A stretch of 64,000 nt of DNA from Pirellula staleyi DSM 6068 (GTDB taxonomy: Bacteria > Planctomycetota > Planctomycetia > Pirellulales > Pirellulaceae), in assembly GCA_945875845.1 (NCBI GenBank), contig CAMCMB010000001.1, positions 186,001 to 250,000 of the forward strand, in the 5' to 3' direction. The number at the start of each line of letters is the position of its first letter. The stretch's first letter is position 1. Position numbers and translations under genes: made by a program. Shown piece by piece: positions 1 to 42,433 of the stretch. The notes under the pieces were generated by a model. The model did no database searches. It was not told where the DNA came from and worked only from the letters and a program-made list of their open reading frames with translations.

Positions 1-861
1 GGCTACGCCGTCGTATTGGAATTGATAGGGTTTGCCATCTCCATAGCGAGCAACCACAGCCGGATCTTCTTTGGATAAGTCGAGTGCATCCACTAATTTG
101 CTGCTCGTCAAAACATCCAAAGCGCGTTGACTGAAGGCATCCATCCCTTCGATCACCCCAGAATTATCGATGTCGCGCCGCATACCGTCGAGACTCGTCA
201 ACAATTGCTTTCGATCTTGGAGTCGGTCAAGCGAAACTCCGTTGAGTTTCATGTTCTCAATCCCGGGCCCATCTGGTTTGAAAGCGGAATGCGACGCGCC
301 TAAGAAACCAGGCCCCCCGCAATCCGACCATTGAACGTGCTGGGATTTTTCTGCCAGTCCGACAAAGGACGGTATGGCTGGGTCGGCGGGACCATAGATC
401 TTGGAGATGGCTGCACCCATCGACGGGCGGCCGCCCAAGGAACGTAGGTCTTCTGTTTGCCAACCGCTCATGCACTGAAACGACTCATGACGGTCTTTGC
501 ATCCGACGATCGATCGAATCACGACCGCTTTGTCCATGACCTGCGCCAACTTTGGAAAGACCTCGCAGATTTCAATGCCCGGTACCTTTGTCGGTATAGG
601 CCGAAACTCTCCACGAATTTCGGAAGGAGCATCGGTTTTGATTTCCCACATGTCTTGATGAGGTGGTCCACCACCCAGGAAAATCTGAATAATGGCTTTG
701 TGCTTGTTGCTTTTCCCTTGGGCTGCTTCCGCCCGCAGGATGTCGCTCAACCCGAAAGCGGTGGCGCCAAAGCTCATGCCGCCAATCTTCAGAAACGAGC
801 GACGCGACTCGCGATCACAATAACTGTTCGGAGCTCCATGCTGACCTAGGATCGACAACAT
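1..861 (-). CDS. DUF1501 family protein, N-terminal part (runs off window)
   Basis: This minus-strand reading frame stays open from the ATG at 861 to the window edge, giving 287 residues of a protein whose C-terminus lies outside. Near the start it has a twin-arginine type stretch (SRRSFLKIGG, about residues 19-28) followed by small hydrophobic residues, and then the conserved IQIFLGGGPPHQDMWEIK segment typical of DUF1501 proteins, which have an alkaline-phosphatase/sulfatase-like fold. In planctomycetes these are usually encoded next to DUF1549/DUF1553 cytochrome proteins; that partner would lie outside the window. Export by the Tat system is inferred from the motif. The catalytic activity is not established for the family. 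Confidence 0.85.
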   Translation of the reverse strand, partial: MLSILGQHGAPNSYCDRESRRSFLKIGGMSFGATAFGLSDILRAEAAQGKSNKHKAIIQIFLGGGPPHQDMWEIKTDAPSEIRGEFRPIPTKVPGIEICEVFPKLAQVMDKAVVIRSIVGCKDRHESFQCMSGWQTEDLRSLGGRPSMGAAISKIYGPADPAIPSFVGLAEKSQHVQWSDCGGPGFLGASHSAFKPDGPGIENMKLNGVSLDRLQDRKQLLTSLDGMRRDIDNSGVIEGMDAFSQRALDVLTSSKLVDALDLSKEDPAVVARYGDGKPYQFQYDGVA

Positions 862-1174
862 AGTGATGGCCGTTTTGGGGGTAAGAGGTGGTGGGCTGGA
901 CTTAGCAAAGCTTGGGAGCCTGCTAGCATTTGTGGGAGGGGGTTTTTAACTCGAAGTCATTTCCCGTAAACATTGAGTCAGTTGGGGGACTTAGAATACT
1001 CCATTACTGTAGCATAAAAGTCAATCCGCGTGTGGTATTTGTGCGCGACGCTTGCCTTTTGTGGCCGGCTTGCGGACAACCTAGGGGTTTGCCCTGGGTA
1101 TTGCCCAAGAAACAGTTAAAATGGGGGGACAGGCTACTTGGCAGCCAGCGAGACTACAACGCACGGAAATAACG
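862..1174. other. Intergenic region between divergent genes
   Basis: About 310 bases separate the divergently transcribed DUF1501 gene and J-domain gene, so it must hold both promoters. I see no convincing small gene, RNA or repeat here. Confidence 0.4.
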
Positions 1175-2128
1175 ATGGCAAGTGATTATTACAAGGTGTT
1201 AGGGATCGACCGGACAGCATCTGCCGAGGAAATTTCCAAGGCATATCGCAAACATGCGCGGAAGCATCATCCCGATTTGAACCCAGATGATAAAAACGCC
1301 AAAAAGCGGTTTCAGGAGGTTCAGCAAGCTTACGATTGTCTAAACGACCTTGAGAAGCGGAAGTTGTATGATCAATTTGGATCCGACTATGAGCAATTGG
1401 GAGGCAAAAATCCGTTCGCAGGTGGACACCCGCGTGGAACGCCGGGTGGTGGTCCAGGCGGTCAGGGGTTCGATTTCGGAGACATTTTCGGCCAAGGTGC
1501 TGCGGGTAGTGTCGACTTAGGCGATCTATTTCGACAGTTCGGAGGTGGTGGTAGCGGACCCCATCGAACACGTCGGGCCGCACCGGCCAAAGGCCAAGAC
1601 ATTTCAGCCGAAATTGCGGTACCATTGAAAACCATCATTCAAGGGGGTGAAACTCAAATCCAACTTGAGCATGACGGTAGGATGGAATCGATCGCGGTCA
1701 AAATTCCAGCCGGTATCGAACCCGGTAAAAAAATAAGGTTGAGGGGCCAGGGACAACCTGTCGCAGGTGGCAAGTCCGGTGATCTACTTCTCAAGATCAA
1801 CGTCGAATCCCATCCATTCTTCAAGATTGCCGGGAAAAATCTGGAATTGAGACTTCCCATCTCGATCCCGGAAGCCATTGAAGGGGCTCGAATCGACGTT
1901 CCGACCCCCTCGGGAACCGTGACACTCAAGATCCCACCGATGAGCAACAGCGGGAAAAAGCTTCGGATCAAAGGCCAAGGGCTAAAAAGTGCCGACGGCA
2001 GCTCAGGCGACATGACTGTCGAACTTATGATCAAACTTCCCGAGGTGGCCCCCCCCAAGTTTGACGAGACCTCGCAGAATTGGGCCGATGCCTATTCAAA
2101 ACCTATTCGAGATGGCGTTCAACTTTAA
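1175..2128 (+). CDS. cbpA: CbpA-type J-domain co-chaperone
   Basis: The 317-residue product begins MASDYYKVLG and has an N-terminal J domain with the HPD tripeptide at residues 32-34, which stimulates DnaK ATPase. A Gly/Phe-rich linker follows (about 75-130), then the two-part C-terminal substrate-binding domain of DnaJ. The four CxxCxGxG zinc-finger repeats of true DnaJ are absent, so this is a CbpA/DjlA-like class II J protein rather than the housekeeping DnaJ. An in-frame ATG 54 bases upstream exists, but the homologous protein starts at 1175. It probably works with a DnaK encoded elsewhere. Only 27 bases separate it from larA, so co-transcription is possible though functionally unexplained. 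Confidence 0.88.
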   Translation: MASDYYKVLGIDRTASAEEISKAYRKHARKHHPDLNPDDKNAKKRFQEVQQAYDCLNDLEKRKLYDQFGSDYEQLGGKNPFAGGHPRGTPGGGPGGQGFDFGDIFGQGAAGSVDLGDLFRQFGGGGSGPHRTRRAAPAKGQDISAEIAVPLKTIIQGGETQIQLEHDGRMESIAVKIPAGIEPGKKIRLRGQGQPVAGGKSGDLLLKINVESHPFFKIAGKNLELRLPISIPEAIEGARIDVPTPSGTVTLKIPPMSNSGKKLRIKGQGLKSADGSSGDMTVELMIKLPEVAPPKFDETSQNWADAYSKPIRDGVQL

Positions 2129-2155
2129 AACAACGTACGAAACGATCGAAAGAAT

Positions 2156-3451
2156 ATGAGCGAGTCCATTGCTATCCGCTACGGGAAAGGGGAACTTCAC
2201 ATCCGTTTGCCCTTGGGATGCGAACCCACTGTCATTCGCAAACCAGACATGCCCGTGCTCCACGATACGAATGAAGCCGTTCGCAACGCGCTTCAGAATC
2301 CTGTGAATGCACCCTCCGTTCAGGAGCTTGCGAAAGGTGCACGGCGAGTCTGTATTGTCATCTGCGACGTCACACGCCCCGTTCCGAATGGCCCCATTCT
2401 CCAGGGGCTTGTCGAGCAACTGCGCGAACACGGCGTCGCTCTGGACCGTATTACGATCCTGATTGCGACTGGCCTACATCGACCGAACCTGGGTCGGGAG
2501 ATGCGGGAAGTGATTGGAAACGACTGGGTTTTCGATAATGTCCGGATCGAAAATCACTTTGCTCGCGATACAGCTTGGATGGTCAATCTGGGGAACACTC
2601 CAACGGACGGCATTCCCGTCCTTCTCAATCGCCATCTCGTCGATGCTGACTTGCGAATCGTCGTGGGCCTCGTTGAGCCACACTTCATGGCCGGTTATTC
2701 GGGCGGTCGCAAAGTGATCGCTCCTGGAGTTGCCGGCGAAACAACGATTCGGACGTTTCATAACCATCGGTTTATGGCGGACCCATTGGCTTGCAACGGA
2801 AACCTTGTTAACAACCCTTTGCACCGGGGGCAGCTTGAGATTTTGAAAATGCTGGGCACGGCATACGCCCTCAATACCGTAATTGATGAAGCCAGGCGTA
2901 TGAGTTTCCTCAATTTTGGGGACTGCGAGCGGAGCCACCTCGAAAGCGTCGCATTTGTGAAGCAGTTCGCAGAAGTCCCCATGGGCAAACAATTCAATAC
3001 GGTGGTAACCAGCGCTGCGGGTTACCCGCTCGACAAGACGTACTACCAAACCGTCAAAGGGATGGTCGCACCGATTCAAATTTTGGCAGATGGCGGACGC
3101 ATGATCATCGCAAGCGCCTGCGAAGAAGGGCTTGGATCTCACGAATATCGCGAGTCACAAACGCGATTGGCGGCACTGGGCCGTCAAGGATTCTTGGATC
3201 GCATCCGTGCGATGCCGCTCGCCGATATCGACGGTTGGCAGACTCATATGCTGTTAAGAACGTTGGCGGTAGGGAACGTATCGCTCTTTAGCGACGGACT
3301 TAAGGGGAATGAAAGAACGTTGACCGGAGTGCAGATGGTCGAGTCGATCGAAGATGCCATCGCGACGAGTATGGCTCACACGGGTGACAAACGAATCGCG
3401 ATTATTCCTGAGGGCCCGTACGTGATACCCACATTTTCCAAATCCGCTTAG
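2156..3451 (+). CDS. larA: Nickel-dependent lactate racemase (LarA family)
   Basis: The 431-residue protein matches the LarA/DUF2088 family, which interconverts D- and L-2-hydroxy acids such as lactate using a nickel-pincer nucleotide covalently bound to lysine. Visible landmarks are ATGLHRP with His108, VEPHFMAGYSGGRK with His176 and Lys186, and FHNHRF with His202/His204. These correspond closely to the catalytic and Ni-ligand residues of the Lactobacillus plantarum enzyme (H108, H174, K184, H200). The cofactor-synthesis genes larB, larC and larE are not in the window, so they must lie elsewhere if the enzyme is active. The large D-lactate-type dehydrogenase 1.8 kb downstream suggests lactate use, although some LarA homologues act on other 2-hydroxy acids. 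Confidence 0.87.
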   Translation: MSESIAIRYGKGELHIRLPLGCEPTVIRKPDMPVLHDTNEAVRNALQNPVNAPSVQELAKGARRVCIVICDVTRPVPNGPILQGLVEQLREHGVALDRITILIATGLHRPNLGREMREVIGNDWVFDNVRIENHFARDTAWMVNLGNTPTDGIPVLLNRHLVDADLRIVVGLVEPHFMAGYSGGRKVIAPGVAGETTIRTFHNHRFMADPLACNGNLVNNPLHRGQLEILKMLGTAYALNTVIDEARRMSFLNFGDCERSHLESVAFVKQFAEVPMGKQFNTVVTSAAGYPLDKTYYQTVKGMVAPIQILADGGRMIIASACEEGLGSHEYRESQTRLAALGRQGFLDRIRAMPLADIDGWQTHMLLRTLAVGNVSLFSDGLKGNERTLTGVQMVESIEDAIATSMAHTGDKRIAIIPEGPYVIPTFSKSA

Positions 3452-3595
3452 GGGCTGAACCTTGGCACCCGTTCGTGGTAATTGCCGAGAATCGTCCATT
3501 TTCTGGTACAATTCCGCAAGTCGGCCCGTTGGGTGCACTAGGTTGTAACCGGGTGGCCGTAGAGTATTCTGACACTTCACCTCGCGAGGAATAGT

Positions 3596-5269
3596 TTGAG
3601 CGCGTTTGCCGCCGGACACGAAGATCTCACGCTGGACGCAGATAGTCCGCTTGCCATACCGTCTCGTCCTGAGTTACAAGAAGAGAGCAGTATTCGAGTC
3701 GGTATGGAGCTGTTTGAAGGAGATAGCGGCACAAGCAAGCAAACCAATTCGCTCATTCAGACACGACTTCAAGGGGCGTCACTTGCTTTGGGGTTTGGTT
3801 TTGCGATCTTTGCAAGTTGGACAGGGTTTCGAGAATTTTTTAGTCGCGACTTCCATTTGGGATACGGTTTTTTAGCGTTAGAGATTTTTGCAACCGTGGT
3901 TCTGATCGGGGTTGGTGTGTGGCTTTCGAAGGTGCCGAACGCGTCTGCGTCCTGTTTGCTTTGGTGCGAACTGGTGATCTTTGGCGTTCCTACCTTTGCC
4001 TTCACGGTATTGCACTACCTTGAAATTGTTTTCATGGCGCCCATTTTCGATTTGATTCCGCAAATGCCGATGTCGGGATGGATCATTCTTATTTTCGCGT
4101 ACGCCATCTTTGTCCCACGTTCATGGTATCGCATTCTGGGTGTGGTTGTGACGATCAGCCTCTTTCCAATCTTAGCGACTGTTTTCGCGATGATCTTTCA
4201 CCAAAACGTTCGCGACTTGATCCTGCACGACGGTTCGAGTTGTGTCGAAATGTTCATTTCGTTAGCGGCCACAATCTTTGCTGCCGTATCTAGTGTTCGA
4301 ATGATTTCCAATCTGCGTACCCAAGCGGACGAGGCAAAAGAGTTTTCGCGATATCGACTCAAACAGAAAATCGGTTCCGGTGGGATGGGTGATGTCTATT
4401 TGGCTGAACACAGGTTGCTGAGAAGACCCTGTGCGATCAAAGTCATTCGTCCCGAAAAGGCAGGGGACCCAAAAGCCATCGCTCGATTCGAACGCGAAGT
4501 TCGCGCAACGGCTCGCCTCAATCATTGGAATAGCATCTCCATTTATGATTACGGCCGCACCGCCGACGGTACTTTTTTCTATGTGATGGAATACTTGTCG
4601 GGTATGAGTGCACACGACTTGGTCAAACGCAAAGGACCGCTCTCGCCCTCGCGGGTTGTTTATTTGCTCAAGCAAGTCTGCAGTGCGCTCAGCGAAGCCC
4701 ATGCGGTTCAATTGGTACACCGCGATATCAAGCCGGCGAATATGATTGTGGCGGAAATGGGTGGCTCATTCGATGTGATTAAGTTGCTGGACTTTGGTCT
4801 AGCCAAGCCGATGTCGAGCGCTCTGCAAAATACCGAAGAAGCCGAATTGACGGTGGTCGGCTCGTTGACAGGCTCACCGCACTACATGTCACCGGAGCAA
4901 GCTATGGGCGAAGTTCAAACGGACCAACGCTCCGACATCTACGGCATTGGTGGGGTCGCATTTTATATGTTGACTGGGCGGCCACCTTTCGATAGCGGTG
5001 CGACACTTAAAATATTGATGTCGCATTTGAATGAACCCGCGGTGCCACCTTCTTCGGTTCGCAAGCATGGGCACGGACAACCCATCTCGCCGGAATTGGA
5101 TGCCATTGTATTGAAGTGCCTTGCAAAATCGGCCGACGATCGATTTCAATCCGCACGTGAACTCTACGACGCACTCAATTCCCTCCCGGAATCATCGCAA
5201 TGGAATGAACGATTGGCGGAACAATGGTGGACTAGCAACAGCAGCACATACCAAACCGAGAACGGATAA
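3596..5269 (+). CDS. Membrane Ser/Thr protein kinase, C-terminal kinase domain
   Basis: The 557-residue protein has about 250 N-terminal residues with several hydrophobic spans (roughly 60-75, 90-110, 120-145, 160-175, 180-202, 218-235), followed by a Hanks-type kinase domain. The kinase shows the glycine loop IGSGGMGDVY (259-268), Lys282, HRD at 375-377 with DIKPAN, DFG at 399-401 and SPHYMSPEQ. All catalytic residues are present. The start is TTG, preceded by a CGAGGA ribosome site; the next plausible ATG lies 36 codons in. Many bacterial kinases have an N-terminal kinase and a C-terminal membrane anchor; here the order is reversed. Its stop lies 4 bases before the dehydrogenase gene, so the two are probably co-transcribed and presumably co-regulated. 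Confidence 0.88.
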   Translation: MSAFAAGHEDLTLDADSPLAIPSRPELQEESSIRVGMELFEGDSGTSKQTNSLIQTRLQGASLALGFGFAIFASWTGFREFFSRDFHLGYGFLALEIFATVVLIGVGVWLSKVPNASASCLLWCELVIFGVPTFAFTVLHYLEIVFMAPIFDLIPQMPMSGWIILIFAYAIFVPRSWYRILGVVVTISLFPILATVFAMIFHQNVRDLILHDGSSCVEMFISLAATIFAAVSSVRMISNLRTQADEAKEFSRYRLKQKIGSGGMGDVYLAEHRLLRRPCAIKVIRPEKAGDPKAIARFEREVRATARLNHWNSISIYDYGRTADGTFFYVMEYLSGMSAHDLVKRKGPLSPSRVVYLLKQVCSALSEAHAVQLVHRDIKPANMIVAEMGGSFDVIKLLDFGLAKPMSSALQNTEEAELTVVGSLTGSPHYMSPEQAMGEVQTDQRSDIYGIGGVAFYMLTGRPPFDSGATLKILMSHLNEPAVPPSSVRKHGHGQPISPELDAIVLKCLAKSADDRFQSARELYDALNSLPESSQWNERLAEQWWTSNSSTYQTENG

Positions 5270-5273
5270 CGGA

Positions 5274-8200
5274 ATGGATGCGGACCAGTCGCGGATCGAA
5301 GCGGACTTGCGAGGCGTGTTGGACGGCGAAGTATTCTGCCATTCCTTACGCACTCAGTTGTACGCGAGCGATGCTAGTATCTATGAGATCGCACCTTTGG
5401 CTGTTGTACGACCGCGACACGCCGATGATGTTGCTCAATGCGTCAAGTATGCCTCGGAAAACTCACTGCCGCTGTTCCCACGCGGTGGAGGTACTGGGCT
5501 GGCTGGTCAATCGCTTGGACCGGGAATCGTACTTGATTTTTCTCGATTCATGAGACGTATCATCCACGTCGATCGCGAGAATCTTGTCGTTCGCGTCCAG
5601 CCCGGTATGGCGCTGGCGGACATGAATCGAGCGTTGGCAAAGGATCGGCTTGTTTTTGGTCCCGATCCGCCGACACGCGCGGTAACAACCATCGGAAGCG
5701 TTCTGGCAATCGACACGCTAGGTAGTCATTTTTTGAGGTACGGCACCGCCGGAGCAACACTGGTTTCGGCTCGATGCGTTCTTGCGGATGGCCAGCAAGT
5801 GATGTTGGAAAAGTCCCCTTGGCGAGCGCCCAACTCGGACAATCCCAAGCTCAATCACTTGGTATCCGAAGTGGGGCAATTGTTATGGGCCAACCGCGCA
5901 ATCACGAAATCGCCACCGTGGCGGGGCGTAGCGCGAGGATGCGGTTATCGGCTGGAAGCATCCTTTGACCATGACGTTGTCGACATGGCAAGACTTCAGT
6001 CGGGCGCCGAGGGTACTCTCTCCATACTGACCGAAGCGACGATCAAAGTGGAGCAGTGGCCGGGTGCTCGCGGGGTCGTGCTGATGTTTTTTGAAAAGCT
6101 CGAACTGGCGGCCAGGGCGGCCATCGACGCCCGTCGGGATAATGTCGCTGCCTGCGACTTGATGGACCGACGCTTGATCGAAATTGCTCGCGAACTGGAT
6201 CCACGCTATGAATCGATGTTGCCCCGGGGAGCCGAAGCCCTGTTGTTGATTGAACAACAAGGTGAAGACGTGCCAGAAGTACGCAACAAGCTTGGCGCCC
6301 TCATTCAACGTCTCGTTCGCCGAGCCCCCTCGACACAGCATACGAGAATCATCGTCGATGACGCTGAACGCGATTTCATTTGGAAACTTAGTCGGCGAGT
6401 TATTCCGCGATTGTATCGGCTCAAGGGATCCTCTCGGCCTCTTCCCTTTGTCGAAGACATCTCCATTCCGCCAGATCGCTTGCCCGAGTTCTTGGTCGAA
6501 ATGCAGAACATTCTCAAAGCGGACCGCGTGACGGGGACGCTCTTTGCTCATGCGGCCCACGGTCATTTGCACCTACGGCCATTTTTAGATCCGCATTCGC
6601 CAGACGATATCGCCAAGATGCAGCGAATCGCGGATCGCATTTTCGAAAAAGTCATCGAATACCGAGGTGTGATTTCCGGTGAACACGCTGTGGGACTTAG
6701 TCGAAGCTCCTATCTGAGGCAACAACTCGGCGAACTCTATCCGATCTGTCGCCGAATCAAAGAACTGTTTGATCCGAAGGGGATATTGAATCCAGGAAAA
6801 CTGGTTACCGATGCAGCCCAGAAAACGACCGATAATTTGCGACCTCCGTCGATCGTTACCAATCCCAACCGTAAAGAGTTTAGCCCAGTCCAGTTGATGC
6901 CCCCGGCAGATAGTGTTGTCTTTGCAACCCAAGCGGAAACGCAAGTCAACTTGCTTTCATCCGAAAGGGTTACATTCCGCACGGACGAGCTGACCAATGT
7001 CGTGGAACTAGCACAGAAGTCGTTTCTGCCTATCTTGAAATGGTCGGAATCGGAATCGATGGAGTATACCGCCAACTCTTGCAATGGATGTGGGCGGTGC
7101 CGTTCGAACGCTCCTGCCGAACGAATGTGTCCTATGTTCCGTTCGACGCGAGGCGAGGAAGCCTCGCCCAGAGCCAAGGCGAATTTGGTCCGTGGCCTAA
7201 TGTCGGGCAAGCTACCGATCTCGATGGCCGAAAGCGACGAAATGAAGGAGATTGCTGACCTTTGCTTTCACTGTCATCAGTGCAGGATCGATTGTCCTGC
7301 TTCCGTCGACATCCCTAAACTGATGTTGGAAATCAAGGCACAATACACCGCCACCAATGGATTGCGGGTCAGCGATCGATTGCTTTCGCGACTGGACGCA
7401 TTGACTGCGATGGCTAGCCGAATGCCAACTGTGGCCAATTGGGCATTGGAAAATCGGTATGCGCGATGGTTGTTGGAGAAGACAACCGGAATCGCGCAGG
7501 GGCGCCGCTTGCCGAGACTTGCAAAGCAGTCGTTCATGCGTTGGGCAGCCAAGAATCGGCTGACTCGCCCGAATCGTGGTGCAGGTCGCAAGGTTCTCTA
7601 CTTAGTTGATCACTATGCGAATTGGAACAACCCGCTGGTTGGAATTTCCCTTGTCGAAGTGCTCCAGCACCAAAACGTGGAAGTCTATGTTCCGGCTTGG
7701 CAGTCCGTCACGTTCATGACCAAGATTGTGATGGGGGATATTGAAAAGGTCCGCGAAATGATTGGGCCCCAAATTCGTCAACTTGCAGAAGCTGTCCGTC
7801 AAGGCTATCAAATCGTTACGACGGAGCCGACGGCCGCGATGTGTTTAAAGGTCGAATACGTTCATATCCTCGACAACGAGGATGCGAGATTGGTCGCAGC
7901 CAACACTTGGGATGCAGGCCAATACGTGTGGCAAATGCACGCGAACAACGAACTTGAATTGGACTTCAAGCCATTGACGACGACCGTCATGTATCACACG
8001 CCTTGTCATTTGCGGGCGATCGACCAATCGCATACTGGAATGAAATTGCTTAGTCTCATTCCGGGCTTATCGGTTCAGCATGCCGACGCGGGTTGCAGCG
8101 GCATGGCAGGTACGTATGGGATTCGTCGTCAAACCTATCGGACAAGTTTGCGTGTTGGCTGGGGGTTGATTAGCAAGATGCAGGAAACGACAGCTCAAAT

Positions 8201-8357
8201 CGGAAGTACCGAGTGCTCGACCTGCAAGCTGCAAATGGAGCAGGGCATCGATAAGCCAACCGTCCATCCGCTTGCTCTGATGGCATTTGCCTACGGAAAA
8301 TTGCCTGAAGTCAAGACTTGGATTCAAAGCCGAAACGAGGGTCTGACGGTCCAGTAG
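5274..8357 (+). CDS. FAD/Fe-S D-lactate-type dehydrogenase (YdiJ-like)
   Basis: This 1027-residue protein fuses a FAD-binding oxidase and an iron-sulfur electron-transfer module. The N-terminal half has the VAO-type FAD motif (RGGGTGLAGQ, about residue 73) and the FAD-linked oxidase C domain with GEHAVGLSR. After about residue 600 come two ferredoxin clusters (CNGCGRC... and CFHCHQCRIDC) and a Cys-rich CCG-type domain (HTPCHLRAID, GCSGMAGTYG, ECSTCK). The architecture and length match E. coli YdiJ and related D-lactate/D-2-hydroxyacid dehydrogenases feeding electrons to the respiratory chain. I chose the ATG at 5274, just after the kinase stop; the frame is open further upstream but only inside the kinase gene. 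Exact substrate is inferred from the LarA neighbour. Confidence 0.85.
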   Translation: MDADQSRIEADLRGVLDGEVFCHSLRTQLYASDASIYEIAPLAVVRPRHADDVAQCVKYASENSLPLFPRGGGTGLAGQSLGPGIVLDFSRFMRRIIHVDRENLVVRVQPGMALADMNRALAKDRLVFGPDPPTRAVTTIGSVLAIDTLGSHFLRYGTAGATLVSARCVLADGQQVMLEKSPWRAPNSDNPKLNHLVSEVGQLLWANRAITKSPPWRGVARGCGYRLEASFDHDVVDMARLQSGAEGTLSILTEATIKVEQWPGARGVVLMFFEKLELAARAAIDARRDNVAACDLMDRRLIEIARELDPRYESMLPRGAEALLLIEQQGEDVPEVRNKLGALIQRLVRRAPSTQHTRIIVDDAERDFIWKLSRRVIPRLYRLKGSSRPLPFVEDISIPPDRLPEFLVEMQNILKADRVTGTLFAHAAHGHLHLRPFLDPHSPDDIAKMQRIADRIFEKVIEYRGVISGEHAVGLSRSSYLRQQLGELYPICRRIKELFDPKGILNPGKLVTDAAQKTTDNLRPPSIVTNPNRKEFSPVQLMPPADSVVFATQAETQVNLLSSERVTFRTDELTNVVELAQKSFLPILKWSESESMEYTANSCNGCGRCRSNAPAERMCPMFRSTRGEEASPRAKANLVRGLMSGKLPISMAESDEMKEIADLCFHCHQCRIDCPASVDIPKLMLEIKAQYTATNGLRVSDRLLSRLDALTAMASRMPTVANWALENRYARWLLEKTTGIAQGRRLPRLAKQSFMRWAAKNRLTRPNRGAGRKVLYLVDHYANWNNPLVGISLVEVLQHQNVEVYVPAWQSVTFMTKIVMGDIEKVREMIGPQIRQLAEAVRQGYQIVTTEPTAAMCLKVEYVHILDNEDARLVAANTWDAGQYVWQMHANNELELDFKPLTTTVMYHTPCHLRAIDQSHTGMKLLSLIPGLSVQHADAGCSGMAGTYGIRRQTYRTSLRVGWGLISKMQETTAQIGSTECSTCKLQMEQGIDKPTVHPLALMAFAYGKLPEVKTWIQSRNEGLTVQ

Positions 8358-8515
8358 AGTTTGGCTCGTGCTGAAATTTTCGAATCAAAGGGGTCAGTCG
8401 TTCATCCCCTGGTCCAGCAGCACCCGCTGAAGATCTTGGTGAATAATTCGGGATCAGGAAGTTTACCGACGGACACTAACAAGATTGAAATCCGGCATAA
8501 TGGAGAAGATGTCAT

Positions 8516-24048: not shown

Positions 24049-24505
24049 CCATCAACAGCGCATTGCTTGCACCAAGACGCTTCCGTCTCTGGGCTTGCGA
24101 GCGGCTAGAGTAGGTTCTTTTTGGCCACGGCAGATCAAGCATGAATTGTAGCCTATGTCAGGACCATTTGCTCCCTCTTCAACGAGCGGCTACCTCATAC
24201 AAAAGCGGGGACAGTTGCTCTGCTACGGACGGATCACCAGATTCGATTTGCGACAGGATTTGCGTGACGTCGGACATAGGTGCATGCGAGAATCACTTCT
24301 ACAGGGTATCCTATGGGTACGCCCATCTGCGAATTGTTTGGTGGGCGTTCGCACGCGTATCACCCAGGACTCCTGCCCGAAGGGAGCTGCGTGGTGAAGA
24401 GCCGTTTCAGTAAGCCTTCGTCCCTTGGCGATTGAGGAACAAGAGGCCGGTTTCAAAGCTCTCGCGAACCAATCCAGAACCAACCCCAGCTCGAAAGATA
24501 ATAGG
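24049..24505. other. Intergenic region between divergent genes
   Basis: About 450 bases separate the FAD oxidoreductase and the broken sialate-O-acetylesterase gene. Several short frames occur but none has a recognisable product; no repeat was noticed. Confidence 0.3.
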
Positions 24506-26223
24506 ATGATGATCAACCCTTTGGTGCGAATCGTGACGCTTCTCGTGATAGCGGCGTTTTCGCATTTCACGAAGGCCACCGGGCACGACCCGGTCATCGT
24601 TCCTGACTTCACCAAGGGTGCGAAAATCCCGATGGAACGTCTCGCATATGTGACAGGGTCTGGATGTCCTATTTGACTGGGCCGTACGATGGCAGTGCCA
24701 ATGGCGAAGGCTTGGGGAGATTGACTACAGGCTTTGGCGCACGCGGAGACCGACCCACTAAAAATGGTGGAAAGATCGGGCCTGAGTTCACCTTCGGTAT
24801 CACGATGGAGAAAGAGCTAAAGGAACCCATCCTGATCATCAAGACCGCTTGGGGCGGCAGATCACTCAACACCGAATTTCGCCCACCCAGTGCTGGGCCA
24901 TATAAACTGCCTAAGCAGGTTTAAGACGAGTGGGACAAACATCCGCAGGGTGCTCACGGCATTCCCAAGCTTGAGGATCGGAACAAATGGCAGGAAGACA
25001 AGACTGCCGCTTCAGGTGTATTTTACCGCATGATGGTTGAGCACGTGAAAAAGGTGCTCGCAGATCCCTCTCGGGTCTGCCCCGCTTTTGATCCCAATTC
25101 GGGCTATGAACTCGCAGGTTTTGTATGGCTTCAAGGTTTCAACGATCTTGTCGACGGCCAGACCTATCCGAATGGCAATTATGACGAGTACTCGCGACTC
25201 TTGGCACACTTCATCCGCGACGTGCGCCATGACCTTTCCGCCCCGAAGATGCCATTCGTCATCGGTGTACTCGGTGTCGATGGCGAGAAGAACGTAAACT
25301 TCCGAAAAGCCATGGCTGCTCCGGCTGCCATGCCCGAGTTCCAGGGAAATGTGGTTGCTGTCGATACCGCTCCTTTTTGGGATCGTGACATCGAAGCTGC
25401 AGAACCCAAGCAGCGTGAGTATAACGATATCGTCGGTACGGCTCACACATTGAAGGCCGATGGTACGCTCGATACTCAGCGGAAATGGGATAAGTTCTGG
25501 AAGCCGATTGGTAAGCCTTTACCAGAGGAGCGAAACTGGCACTTCGTCACGGTCGATGCCACCGAATCGAAAGACAAATTGAAAGAGTTCACCGATAGGC
25601 GATTCCGCGATATTTCACTGCCCGCCGGACTGGCGAATTGGGTTATGCCTGACTTCGACGACAGTCAATGGACTGTAGGTAAGGCACCCATCGGCAAGGG
25701 CGTCTGGAAACACAGCGGAATCACTTTGAACAACTATTCCTCAAATTGGGGAGAGGAAGAGTTCCTGCTAATACGTTCCACTTTTGAAGTAGATAACCTG
25801 GACTACGATTCCTACCGCCTCGCGATCTTGGCGAGACAGGGGTTCCATGTTTATTTGAACGGCCAAAAGATTCACACCTACATCTGGTGGCAGGATAAGC
25901 CACACTACAGATCGATCGTCCTCGACAAGGAAAAGACTCGGTATTTGAAGATAGGGAAGAACGTCTTGGCGGTTTATGCCAACGACCAATACTCTCCGAA
26001 ATCCGCAGATCATTTTGCCGCTCTCGATGCCTGGGTTGAAGGAATCACTAAAGTGGATCAGGAGAAGCTAGACCTCGCTTTGGAGGAGGTCCTTTCACCC
26101 AAAGACCGAGAAGCACTGAAGGGTGCATCCAATGGAGGCTACCATTACTTCGGCAGTGCAAAAATCTTTGCTCAGATGGGCAAAGCCTTTGCCGAAGCAA
26201 ACCTTAGGCTCATCAAGAAGTGA
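24506..26223 (+). pseudogene. Broken sialate O-acetylesterase (SASA family)
   Basis: A signal peptide (MMINPLVRIVTLLVIAAFSH) leads into a short segment that ends at about 24,675. The family then continues in another frame with YLTGPYDGS, KIGPEFTFG and ILIIKTAWGGRSL, hits an in-frame TAA at 24,922-24,924, and resumes in the same frame (DEWDKHPQG) to the natural end at 26,223. The nucleophile block GQSNM expected near the N-terminus is absent, indicating an internal deletion as well. The downstream part still shows FVWLQGFND and a beta-rich C-terminal domain. With a deletion, a frameshift and a nonsense codon the gene is almost certainly dead. Confidence 0.8.
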
Positions 26224-36193: not shown

Positions 36194-36433
36194 AAGACTC
36201 CGTTCGGTAGCGGACGTCAGGCGTCATCAACCGGTACAAACGCCATGAAGGTCCACTGGTAGAAAGTCAGAAAGTGCATGTTGAAGCGGTTGCGAAGCAG
36301 CCCTTGCCATTGCTAGACTTGAGTCTCGTAGTCACGAGCCGATCAAATCCGCATTGCTCAGACACGGCAAATCGGCACAGTTCAACGGGTAAATCGATTG
36401 TTCCACTACAGGTGGGATAGATTACTATTCGTT
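36194..36433 (+). repeat. Dispersed 240-bp repeat, copy A
   Basis: This stretch, beginning AGACTCCGTTCGG and ending GGGATAGATTACTATTCGTT, recurs imperfectly at 42,196-42,433. Shared blocks include GGTAGAAAGTCAG, AAGTGCATGTTGA, GGTTGCGAAGCAGCCCTTGCC and CAGACACGGCAAATCGGCA. It ends 23 bases before a small gene. No ORF is shared, so it is non-coding; it may carry a promoter. Confidence 0.8.
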
Positions 36434-36711: not shown

Positions 36712-37188
36712 ATGCAAGCTTCCATATGGCTGATGCTCTTATTCGTTGCCATCTCTGGCGCCGTTGGCGGTGCCGTAAATGCGTTGATGACAGACAACGG
36801 CTTCCTGTTGCCAAAGGCAGACCAAGCAACTAGCGGTAGTACTATTTTGAGACCAGGCTACCTTGGCAACGTCTTGATAGGGTCAGTGGCGTCTGTGATC
36901 TCCTGGGGTCTGTACGGTCCTTTGAGTTCCTTTTTTGTTGCCGGAACTGCCGAAGCTCTCAAGGCTAATGCGTCGCCGGAGAACGTAGGTCTATCCCTGG
37001 CTTCGCTTGTTGGTGGTTTACTGATTGGGATAGGCGGAGCCCGATGGCTATCAAGTGAAGTCGACAAAAACCTACTCCGGGCAGCCGCCGCAGAAGCCGC
37101 CGGGAAGAACTCTTCGCCAAACGCGTCTCAGCAGATTTCCATGGCTTCGCCCGCCCAGGCGTTGAACGTGGCAAGGAGTATGAAGTAG
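36712..37188 (+). CDS. Conserved hypothetical small membrane protein
   Basis: The 158-residue protein starts with a hydrophobic segment (WLMLLFVAISGAVGGAVNAL) followed by a loop, a second span (YLGNVLIGSVASVISWGLYG) and a third (LSLASLVGGLLIGIGGARWL). The tail is Ala/Ser/Asn-rich and probably cytoplasmic. The glycine-rich membrane segments and the motif LRPGYLGNVLIG suggest a conserved family, but I cannot name one or give a function. It lies in the rearranged accessory region between repeat copy A and a group II intron remnant. Confidence 0.65.
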   Translation: MQASIWLMLLFVAISGAVGGAVNALMTDNGFLLPKADQATSGSTILRPGYLGNVLIGSVASVISWGLYGPLSSFFVAGTAEALKANASPENVGLSLASLVGGLLIGIGGARWLSSEVDKNLLRAAAAEAAGKNSSPNASQQISMASPAQALNVARSMK

Positions 37189-37204
37189 CGATAAAGAGGC
37201 CTAA

Positions 37205-37620
37205 CCCCTCGCGCAAGCTGAGCTCCGTTCCTCACCCATACCGAGTGCCGACACTGTCTGTGTTGCGGGAAGGCAAAATGTCCCATTGCGCTATTGGCAA
37301 GCGATGGAATGGCTCGGCGGAGTCGAGGAACCTGAGCATGCGTAGAAACTTCAATCGCGAGAACCGGGAGACCCTTCCAGCTTCCAACGATGGCCAGCAA
37401 CCATCGTCGGAACGATCAGTGAACGCTCAAGGTGGTAATGCTGATATGCACGCTGAACATGGTCACGCATGCGGAGGCTCATTCGCAAGTACCTTCCCCG
37501 TCCGAAGATTATCCACCCTTATCCGGAAATCCGTTTTCACGATCGAGTTGCGGCAAGAGCCGTATGAGGTAATTCTTCACGCACGGATCTGTGCGGGGGA
37601 TGGCCAGCAATGGCCATTCC
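37205..37620 (+). mobile_element. Group II intron remnant, 3' part (no maturase)
   Basis: The end of this stretch contains a domain-V-like hairpin (37,557-37,589) beginning GAGCCGTATGAGG with the AGC triad, an internal CGC-type bulge and closing CACGGATC. It is followed by a domain-VI-like stem (GGGATGGCC/GGCCATTCC, 37,596-37,620). The upstream part translates in one frame to NFNRENRETLP and MHAEHGHACGG, a pattern familiar from leader regions of bacterial group II introns. No reverse transcriptase gene is present, so the intron is deleted internally. Its 5' end seems lost. Confidence 0.6.
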
Positions 37621-37621
37621 G

Positions 37622-37735
37622 TGGGGGCAGTAACTGGAATACCTCCGACAATTGCCGTTCGGCGAACCGTAACAACAATTCGCCTGACAACCACAACGAC
37701 AACATAGGCTTTCGCCCCGCCCTCCAGCTCAGTCG
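37622..37735 (+). repeat. Adenine-rich FGE-tail sequence, DGR template-like
   Basis: Directly after the group II intron 3' end, the sequence reads in frame as GGSNWNTSDNCRSANR, then NNNSPDNHNDNIGFR. This is the C-terminal motif of formylglycine-generating-enzyme-fold proteins. The positions that vary in such proteins are almost all AAC or AAT here, and a GC-rich segment (CGCCCCGCCCTCCAGCTC) follows. That pattern is characteristic of the template repeat of diversity-generating retroelements. No reverse transcriptase or matching variable gene is in the window, so it is an orphan. Confidence 0.5.
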
Positions 37736-37970
37736 AGTCAAATTATTTGAAATTGACTGAACCGGTTGTATTCCTGCCGCACAATTGTTGTGCGCAAATG
37801 AAGTCATCCATTTCACGTGCTAGTAGTCCAATAAGGATCGAAAGCTCGCGAACTTTTGTATCCATTGGGGAAAGACCAATAGGGACACTGGCCGCGACCG
37901 AAGAACCAAATGAATGTGATTCGCCAAAAGACAAAAGAGCATAGTAAGGAAGATCGATCCCAAAGTTCTT

Positions 37971-38172
37971 GGCAAGATGCTGCGGCTCAAATAGGCAGGA
38001 CCGAGTGCTCAACATGCAAACTGCAAATGGAGTAGGGGATCGATAAGCCAACCGTCCATCCGCTTGCTCTGATGGCCTTTGCCTACGGAAAACTGCCTAA
38101 AGTCAAGACTTGGATTCAAAGCCGAAACGAAGGTCTGATTGTGCAGTAGAGGTTGGCTCGTGCTGAAATTTT
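37971..38172 (+). pseudogene. Duplicated 3' end of the lactate dehydrogenase gene
   Basis: This segment is a close copy of the final codons and post-stop sequence of the FAD/Fe-S dehydrogenase gene (about 8,171-8,378), including ACCGAGTGCTC, the run GATCGATAAGCCAACCGTCC and CTTGGATTCAAAGCCGAAAC. It contains TAG at an interior Gln/Glu position and several substitutions. The similarity extends about 23 bases past the stop codon (GTTGGCTCGTGCTGAAATTT). Only the last 60 or so codons remain. Confidence 0.85.
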
Positions 38173-38189
38173 TGACCTGTCCAGCGATC

Positions 38190-38875
38190 GGTCCCAACCC
38201 CAACGACCGCAGCGCAGCAAGCGGTCCCTGCCCCAACGACCTTGTGTCGTTGGTCAGCAAGTTTGCTAGGCTAACAACAGCCAAACCGCGAAGCGGTCCC
38301 GGCCCCCATGTGCTCGCCACATGGGTGAGGAAAGTTCCCACGGCCCCGCGACGTGCGAAACTTGAGCGACCCACGACACAAGGTCGTGGGGGGGCTTAAA
38401 ACCGCCTGAGGTCGATTGATTGTTAGCCGACCAGACTTTGCTTCTCATGACACAAGGTCATGAGGGGCGAAACCAGCCTGCTTTGCAGCTGGCTGAGTGG
38501 TGCTGTTGACATTCAACGCAAGCGCAGCAAGCGGTCCCAACCCGAACGACCGCAGCGCAGCAAGCGGTCCCTGCCCCAACGACCGCAGCGCAACAAGCGG
38601 TCCCTGCCCCAACGACCTTGCGTCGTTGGACAGCAAGTTTGGTCGGCTAACAACAGCCAAACCGCGAAGCGGTCCCGGCCCCCATGTGCTTGCCACATGG
38701 GTGAGGAAAGTTCCCACGGCCCCGCGACGTGCGAAACTTGAGCGACCCACGACACAAGGTCGTGGGGGGGCTTAAAACCGCCTGACGGCGATTGTTTGTT
38801 AGCCGAACAGACTTTGCTTCTCATGACACAAGGTCATGAGGGGCAAAACCAGCCTGCTTCGCGGCAGGCTATTGT
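38190..38875 (+). repeat. 376-bp tandem repeat rich in hairpins, about two units
   Basis: Two near-identical units are offset by about 376 bases (for example CCAAACCGCGAAGCGGTCCC at 38,281 and 38,657). Each contains CCCACGAC-acaag-GTCGTGGG, CTCATGAC-acaag-GTCATGAG, AACGAC-cttg(t/c)-GTCGTT and CCCATGTG-CCACATGGG stems. Within the unit a 30-base word (CGCAGCGCAGCAAGCGGTCC) is itself repeated. No gene spans it in a believable way. Confidence 0.85.
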
Positions 38876-41939: not shown

Positions 41940-42195
41940 AAGGTTTGGTGCACTAGAAACACCAACCCGTAGGGACACGCAAAGGGACGCAGGAAATCGC
42001 CGGGATAAACCGGATTGGAGTTGGGAATGAAAGAGTCCACCAAAGAAGATTTAGGCAATCACTTTGGCCTCGAGTTGTACGCCGATGGCGGGAACGTCAT
42101 GGGTGTAGCAACGGCAGTGGGTTACGCAGGCAAGCTATTGAGCTCCGAAATCAGAAGACCCGATTCATTCGGGCCGAATGAGACGGCCCCGTTGG
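41940..42195 (+). mobile_element. Group II intron remnant, 5' part
   Basis: After a stretch with GTGCACTAGAAACACCAACCC come GGAGTTGGGAATGAAAGAG and a frame reading NHFGLELYADGGNVMGVATA, then YAGKLLSSEI. Such pseudo-peptides are recurrent in the 5' structural part of bacterial group II introns. The sequence breaks off where repeat copy B begins. The words GCAAGCT and GAGCTCCG near 42,130-42,158 recur at 37,209-37,224 in the other remnant, where that one begins. No maturase gene or 3' domains are present here. Confidence 0.5.
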
Positions 42196-42433
42196 AGACT
42201 CCGTTCGGCAGCGGCTGGCAGGCGTTATCAACTGGCGCAAGCGGCATGAGGGTCCACCGGTAGAAAGTCAGGAAGTGCATGTTGATGTGGTTGCGAAGCA
42301 GCCCTTGCCTTTGCTAGACTTTAATCTTGCAGCGGTGTGACGATGGAATCCGCATTACTCAGACACGGCAAATCGGCATAGTTCAACGGGTAGTCTATCC
42401 CTCGGCTGCGGTTGGGATAGATTACTATTCGTT
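42196..42433 (+). repeat. Dispersed 240-bp repeat, copy B
   Basis: This is the second copy of the repeat at 36,194-36,433, colinear over its whole length with scattered substitutions. It ends in TTGGGATAGATTACTATTCGTTCG, 11 bases before the next gene. It directly follows the group II intron 5' remnant. Confidence 0.8.

What the first reader, a model, noticed from the sequence alone, without database searches (positions are those of the whole stretch)
37554..37740. Orphan diversity-generating-retroelement template at the 3' end of a group II intron remnant
Seen: right after a domain V/VI-like structure (37,557-37,620), the next 110 bases encode the FGE/C-lectin tail motif with asparagine (AAC/AAT) at nearly every position that is variable in such proteins: W-N-T-S-D-N-C-R-S-A-N-R-N-N-N. 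A GC-rich stretch follows. Established: this AAC pattern is how DGR template repeats look, because adenines are the mutagenised positions. Inference: a DGR template, or an intron that landed in one, has been left without its reverse transcriptase. An intron end directly abutting a DGR-like template would be unusual.
Basis: partly seen in the sequence, partly recalled or inferred. Interest (0 to 1): 0.75.

Follow-up and report, generated by a model that had tools for sequence, protein, structure and literature searches.

The report
Stray copy of a mutation template
This is a shortened, stray duplicate of the template that a gene-diversifying retroelement elsewhere in the same planctomycete-like genome uses to scramble two receptor-like genes, fused by chance to a scrap of an unrelated mobile intron.

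Summary
Window 37620-37734 is a diversity-generating retroelement (DGR) template repeat: its 115 bases equal part of the template of a complete DGR on contig C129 of the same genome. Over 37620-37716, the C129 variable repeat differs at 13 bases and a remote one on contig C6 at 18, all at template adenines. So the enzyme is not lost from the genome, only absent here.

The intron did not land cleanly in the template. The group II remnant lacks its last 9 nt, the template its first 20 or so and everything upstream; the joint looks like a recombination scar in a patch of dispersed repeats. The copy keeps, intact, a 3' RNA element that covaries across related DGRs.

Best reading: a 5'-truncated duplicate, probably a relic, possibly still a template in trans. 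RT-less, degenerate DGR loci are already described (PMC10907252), so this is a new member of a known kind. The by-product, a covarying template-RNA 3' element without an Rfam match here, is the more interesting part.

The parts
37213..37374 (+). Group II intron remnant, part of domains I-III (5' end of the intron missing)
   Evidence: RF02005 hit 37092-37332; 93% to the C66 copy over 37213-37374; 5 places in the genome match from exactly 37213, and those copies share further sequence upstream that the window lacks
37451..37556 (+). Intron remnant, read as the 3' end of the intron-encoded-protein region of domain IV; the protein gene is otherwise missing
   Evidence: 89% to C17:52158-52327 over 37451-37620; a group II RT fragment precedes the C55 copy (TIGR04416, below its cut-off of 300 bits at 205). 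The reading as domain IV is inference
37557..37620 (+). Domain V and the 5' part of domain VI; the last 9 nt (TACCGCGAY in 4 of the 6 other 3' ends compared, TACCGCTAT in a fifth) are missing
   Evidence: 100% to C66 over 64 nt; 3' ends compared; base 37620 (C) fits either side of the joint
37620..37734 (+). 5'-truncated DGR template repeat (TR), identical over 115 nt to C129:7187-7301; about the first 20 nt of the C129 TR (7167-7186) absent
   Evidence: the TR limits come from a scoring script
37707..37727 (+). GC-rich 3' end of the TR, in the position of IMH* of the Bordetella phage DGR (role inferred)
   Evidence: identical in the C129 TR and VR; in the C6 VR only 37707-37716 is kept
37722..37802 (+). 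Conserved template-RNA 3' element: two hairpins with AGCTCA ... GAAC(A/C)G ... GCAAA motifs
   Evidence: found by a model built without any sequence of this genome, 27.7 bits, E 1.7e-5 in 137 kb; covariation; 37725-37815 folds with z -3.8
37803..37886 (+). Rest of the duplicated flank; most differences to C129 are here
   Evidence: 11 of the 13 differences lie in 37800-37886
37985..38175 (+). Repeat, 91% to window 8193-8383
38182..38870 (+). Two copies (38182-38494, 38558-38870; 94%) of a repeat dispersed through the genome
   Evidence: 49 of the 52 places matched by the 761-bp query fall in this repeat (a lower bound, 40 of 90 candidates scored)

Best explanation
A stretch of at least 267 bp from inside the template repeat of a complete DGR (contig C129), running through its 3' spacer element into the downstream flank, was duplicated at DNA level into an intergenic patch of dispersed repeats. 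There it was joined to the 3'-truncated end of a dead group II intron copy. The parent DGR works, as DGRs do, by copying its template RNA with an adenine-error-prone reverse transcriptase and writing the mutated cDNA into FGE-type variable repeats, two of which (C129, C6) fit its template. The window copy has the mutable part of the template and an intact 3' RNA element, but lacks the 5' end of the template, a recognisable promoter, a nearby target and a nearby enzyme, so it is most likely a non-functional relic. Shown: template identity, parent DGR, adenine-type variable repeats, truncation on both sides of the joint, intact 3' element. Inferred: DNA-level duplication, the order of events, activity of the parent, and lack of function here.
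For: Exact match to the C129 TR over 115 nt and 95% over 267 bp. C129 carries RT (best solved relatives 8ub7 and related entries, E 2.8e-42, next best 5.5e-13), HRDC and kinase-FGE genes. VR mismatches at adenines: 16 of 17 and 22 of 22. Both VRs follow the roughly 20 nt of template that the window copy lacks, with changes there at adenines (4 of 4 in C6, 3 of 4 in C129; searches compared), so the full C129 template fits as donor. No adenine changed in the window copy, hence probably not written by the DGR enzyme. Intron end incomplete. Repeat-rich surroundings. No sigma-70-like promoter in 37100-38000. R1 gives three templates at E <= 0.01 in the genome: C129, C38 and this one (150 of about 1,000 first-look candidates scored).
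Against: The TR plus 3' element has 2 differences from C129 in 180 bp against 11 in the 87-bp flank (Fisher P 1.2e-4; P 9e-4 for so few on a neutral orphan branch), which hints at selection or gene conversion and not at decay. If clustered differences are counted as single events these weaken to P 0.09 and 0.22. The exact repeat is 146 bp, near short-read length, so an assembler could have swapped the two flanks; an orphan template would remain either way.
Confidence: 0.78

Rival explanations
1. It is still a working second template: RNA from this locus is recognised through its 3' element by the C129 (or C38) reverse transcriptase and supplies mutated cDNA in trans.
For: 3' element intact; zero differences in the TR and excess conservation over the flank; trans diversification is reported for other bacteria (PMC10907252, section 8 read).
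Against: About 20 nt of the template's 5' end missing and replaced by intron; no sigma-70-like promoter (other promoter types not covered); both VRs extend into the missing part, so neither needs this copy; the excess conservation is only suggestive.
Confidence: 0.1
2. A whole DGR cassette once sat here, was invaded by the intron and lost its RT and target, leaving only the template end.
For: RT-less template loci recur: G183:C379 has a template and four kinase/FGE stretches but no RT match at E <= 1e-20 in the held genome (genome 83% complete).
Against: No trace of RT, HRDC or sigma-like genes around 37620: the only hit of the four C129 proteins there is the TR itself (tblastn E <= 10).
Confidence: 0.08
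3. The intron inserted cleanly into the template and the TR is its 3' exon.
For: Direct abutment.
Against: The intron lacks its last 9 nt, and no part of the C129 sequence upstream of 7187 is found on the 5' side of the intron.
Confidence: 0.02
4. Assembly or binning artefact: C1 and C129 were wrongly joined across the shared 146 bp, or one contig is foreign.
For: 146-bp exact repeat; assembly in 149 contigs, contamination estimate 3.55%.
Against: Right-hand flanks differ at 11 of 87 positions and left-hand flanks are unrelated, so two separate copies exist; the C6 VR on a 146-kb contig fits the same template.
Confidence: 0.05

Closest known systems
Degenerate DGR loci in Thiohalocapsa PB-PSB1 (PMC10907252; sections 7 and 8 read, other passages seen)
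   Same: Several DGRs in one genome, loci without RT or TR, mobile-element and repeat arrays at DGR loci, targets fitted by a template elsewhere in the genome
   Different: The RT-less loci described there keep targets; here only a truncated template is left and the neighbour is a group II intron remnant
Bordetella phage BPP-1 DGR (PMC12875486, passages seen)
   Same: RT related to 8ub7 at E 2.8e-42 (that 8ub7 is the BPP-1 enzyme is recalled); a structured spacer 3' of the TR, reported to recruit the RT complex
   Different: BPP-1 has Avd and the TR before the RT; here an HRDC gene precedes the RT and the TR follows it
DGRs with more than one TR (PMC6642488: a Stenotrophomonas DGR with two TRs; PMC4891356: Treponema denticola metagenomes with multiple TRs; passages seen)
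   Same: More than one template for a DGR system
   Different: From the passages seen these are not described as truncated copies away from the RT

Membership tests
DGR template repeat | Homologous variable repeat differing almost only at template adenines | tested here: met
   13 of 13 (C129) and 18 of 18 (C6) mismatches at A within 37620-37716; outside that span the C129 repeat has one G and one C change as well
DGR template repeat | DGR-type RT ((I/V/L)GxxxSQ motif) in the genome | tested here: met
   C129 RT reads IGSLTSQ; motif definition from PMC3521204 passages
DGR template repeat | Complete template with both ends and RT in cis | tested here: not met
   about 20 nt of the 5' end missing, no RT near it in the window
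DGR template repeat | 3' template-RNA element of this DGR clade (defined here) | tested here: met
   27.7 bits with held-out model R2
DGR template repeat | Transcribed and reverse transcribed | not testable with these tools
   needs RNA and cDNA data
Intact group II intron | Complete 5' and 3' ends, domains I-VI, encoded protein | tested here: not met
   5' end and the last 9 nt missing, no RT frame between 37213 and 37620
Group II intron remnant | Homology to group II RNA domains | tested here: met
   RF02005 57.9 bits; homologous copy on C55 43 bits to RF00029; the window's own domain V scores only 22.6 bits, under the cut-off

The most novel reading that the evidence does not exclude
The truncated copy is a live solo template: an RNA that starts in group II intron sequence and ends in the conserved DGR 3' element is used in trans by a DGR RT. 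Templates of this clade would then be movable as RNA-element modules, independent of enzyme and target.
Probability: 0.08. Interest if true: 0.75.

Novelty: new member of a known kind. Interest (0 to 1): 0.42.

Why it matters
It shows that part of a DGR template can be copied away from its enzyme and stay identical. It also led to a covarying RNA element just 3' of the template, found in DGR loci of MAGs and genomes labelled Planctomycetes, Bacteroidetes, Fibrobacteria, Verrucomicrobia and others. That gives a handle for finding templates without an RT nearby and for testing how these RTs choose their RNA.

Tried and rejected
Clean intron insertion into a template: rejected because the intron lacks its last 9 nt and the template about its first 20.

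Copying by the DGR enzyme: thought unlikely because no adenine changed and the copied stretch runs beyond the 3' element.

An FGE-type gene with fixed Asn codons: rejected because upstream the frame runs into intron sequence and the parent is a template outside a target gene.

Empty-site comparison in relatives: led nowhere, since the upstream ORF has no match at E <= 1e-5 in the 26 other genomes of the genus.

The C129 TR region has no close copy in 59 relatives, only two 71-72% matches in G016 and G022.

Weak model hits not followed: window 24484-24534 (17.6 bits, E 0.01), C33 and C7 (E 0.8 and 5).

Model recall is imperfect. R1 missed the loci of G022 and G016 at E <= 0.01, although the family's RT and TR-like DNA are there. 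The strict family run with R2 missed C129 itself. R1 at E <= 0.001 hit 15 of 37 named loci not used to build it; 22 were not hit. In the genus and family searches only 150 or 32 first-look candidates per genome were scored.

Papers not held: PMC5758913, PMC5436926, PMC11995886, so what they say about templates and spacer RNA was not checked.

Full report
The feature. Window 37620-37734 is a DGR template repeat, truncated at its 5' end. A DNA search of the window's own genome (7.0 Mb, 149 contigs; window = C1:186001-250000) with 37618-37760 found an exact 141-bp match on contig C129, an 87% match 1.8 kb upstream on the same contig, an 81% match on C6 and an 80% match on C38; six further matches are short and weak (E 1.6-5.7). 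The homology to C129 runs over 267 bp at 95%, with no difference in 37620-37765 and 13 differences in 37766-37886.

The parent DGR. C129 (7,935 bp, L019) encodes, in order after a 304-aa ORF, a 254-aa protein with a modest DUF1492 hit, a 1,144-aa protein kinase with a C-terminal FGE domain, a 171-aa HRDC protein and a 333-aa reverse transcriptase. The RT reads IGSLTSQ, fitting the (I/V/L)GxxxSQ motif that PMC3521204 (passages seen) gives for DGR RTs. Its best solved relatives are 8ub7 and related entries at E 2.8e-42; the next is at 5.5e-13. That 8ub7 is the Bordetella phage BPP-1 enzyme is recalled. By a scoring script the template lies at 7167-7301 and the variable repeat at 5377-5511.

Adenine variation. 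Over a 116-nt span the C129 variable repeat differs from the template at 17 positions, 16 of them template adenines (one is a G); the C6 repeat differs at 22, all adenines (P 1e-9 and 7e-16). Within 37620-37716 the counts are 13 of 13 and 18 of 18. Further 3' the C129 repeat has a C change at 37728 and the C6 repeat leaves the template after 37716. The C6 repeat lies in a 1,217-aa protein with two FGE stretches, next to an AAA ATPase gene, so it is a remote target. Both repeats also follow the roughly 20 nt of template that the window copy lacks, so the full C129 template fits as the donor.

The intron side. RF02005 is hit at 37092-37332. Five places elsewhere in the genome match from exactly 37213 and share further upstream sequence, so the window copy is 5'-truncated. 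No RT frame is left between 37213 and 37620. Domain V (37557ff) matches a C66 copy at 100% over 64 nt. After ...CCATTCC (CCATCCC or CCGTCCC in two copies), 5 of the 6 other 3' ends compared continue with TACCGCGAY or TACCGCTAT; the sixth (C41) diverges. That this is a group II intron 3' end is recalled from the family consensus (compare RF00029). The window goes straight into the template instead. The joint therefore links a broken intron to a broken template, with one base (37620) shared by both.

The surroundings. From 37985 on the sequence is made of repeats. The 761-bp query 37740-38500 met 52 places in the genome, 49 of them in the repeat that starts at 38182, one for 37985-38175, one on C129 and the query itself. 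The left neighbours are a sulfatase gene and a 158-aa ORF without an NCBIfam hit; to the right lies a DEAD-box helicase gene. No C129 protein other than the template region of the target matches near 37620.

The 3' RNA element. The C129 RT search of named genomes kept the best 80 of 255 relatives. A script found an adenine-type repeat pair in 63 of the 80; in 53 of them the best template starts within 150 nt after the RT match end (or up to 60 nt before it), in 10 elsewhere. Many template 3' flanks share a plan: AGCTCA, hairpin 1, GAAC(A/C)G, a linker, hairpin 2, GCAAA. A model from 42 flanks picked for that plan (R1; window, C129, C38 and 39 named loci) was run on 76 of the 80 named loci (the 4 left out are near-duplicates). 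It hit 53 at E <= 0.001: 38 of the 39 used to build it and 15 of the 37 not used. In all 15 of the latter the element starts 135-189 nt after the RT match, about one template length. On the 56-sequence alignment 90.6% of cells pair and the covariation score is 0.690, against at most 0.172 for slid structures and a mean of 0.248 for shuffles; the number of pairs with a change on both sides (8) is not above the shuffles (145 of 500 reach it), and the alignment was fitted to the model, which favours the structure. A second model built without any sequence of this genome (R2) still finds the window element (27.7 bits, E 1.7e-5), C129 (28.2) and C38 (37.6). The loci behind R2 were themselves collected with R1, which had seen this genome, so R2 is not wholly independent. 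Rfam gave no match overlapping 37722-37802 in the window, even at E up to 1, nor on the C129 and C38 loci at gathering cut-offs. That BPP-1 has a structured spacer recruiting its RT is stated in PMC12875486 (passages seen), so the principle is known. Whether this clade's element is in print I could not settle: searches showed nothing on it in their listings, and the papers I most wanted are not held.

How common are orphan templates? R1 gave three templates in this genome at E <= 0.01 (C129, C38, window) and none in 26 others of the genus. R2 over 149 family genomes hit 9 at E <= 0.001, own included. Of the 8 others, three appear from their contig lengths to be loci already used (L045, L046, L052). 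An RT of this family lies beside the hit in 5 of 8. In G166 it is in pieces, and another RT lies on another contig. In G183 there is a template (16 of 19 mismatches at adenines) after four kinase/FGE stretches, three of them in one open frame each, but no RT on the contig (tblastn E <= 1e-3) or in the held genome (E <= 1e-20; 83% complete). In G136 the hit is weak and no RT or FGE stretch is beside it. RT-less templates therefore recur, at low frequency and with incomplete genomes as a caveat.

Is the copy alive? The TR and 3' element carry 2 differences in 180 bp against 11 in 87 bp of flank (Fisher P 1.2e-4), which a neutral relic would not predict. Clustered differences counted once give P 0.09. 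Gene conversion by the C129 copy or simple clustering could explain it. Missing 5' end, no sigma-70-like promoter and no target of its own speak for a relic.

Known or new. PMC10907252 (sections 7 and 8 read) describes degenerate DGR loci without RT, repeat arrays replacing RT or TR, and targets diversified in trans. PMC4891356 (passages) describes target remnants and metagenomes with multiple TRs, PMC6642488 (one passage) a DGR with two TRs. This case belongs with them; the intron junction is most simply an accident of a repeat-rich patch. The genus is probably that of Pirellula sp. CoA8_C32: same-genus genome G022 has a 3,093-bp contig that appears to be L050, an inference from contig length and RT identity.

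Noticed in passing
L025 (G000:C17) 3032-3277 and 4868-5113, minus strand: A third DGR-like locus whose template seems overwritten by its own target gene: the copy after the RT is 92% identical over 246 bp to the end of the FGE gene and beyond, with 12 of 19 mismatches at its adenines, and R1 finds no 3' RNA element there.
   Followed up: partly
L023 (G000:C38) 4892-5020; 2217-2345; 5399-5527: A second DGR with two variable repeats; 19 of 19 and 20 of 20 mismatches to its template are at adenines. Many repeats of about 48-61 bp lie around it.
   Followed up: partly
G183:C379 (L170) 8266-8359 and 228-7971: Template with intact 3' element after four kinase/FGE stretches but no RT found in the held genome; 16 of 19 template-to-repeat mismatches are at adenines.
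   Followed up: partly
template 3' flanks of DGR loci among L045-L124: Covarying two-hairpin RNA element 3' of the template across several phyla, without an Rfam match in the sequences tested.
   Followed up: yes
window 42032-42201 and 36195-36433 / 42196-42433: A second RF02005 fragment (65.2 bits), followed by a stretch that recurs after the sulfatase gene at 36195 (83%).
   Followed up: no
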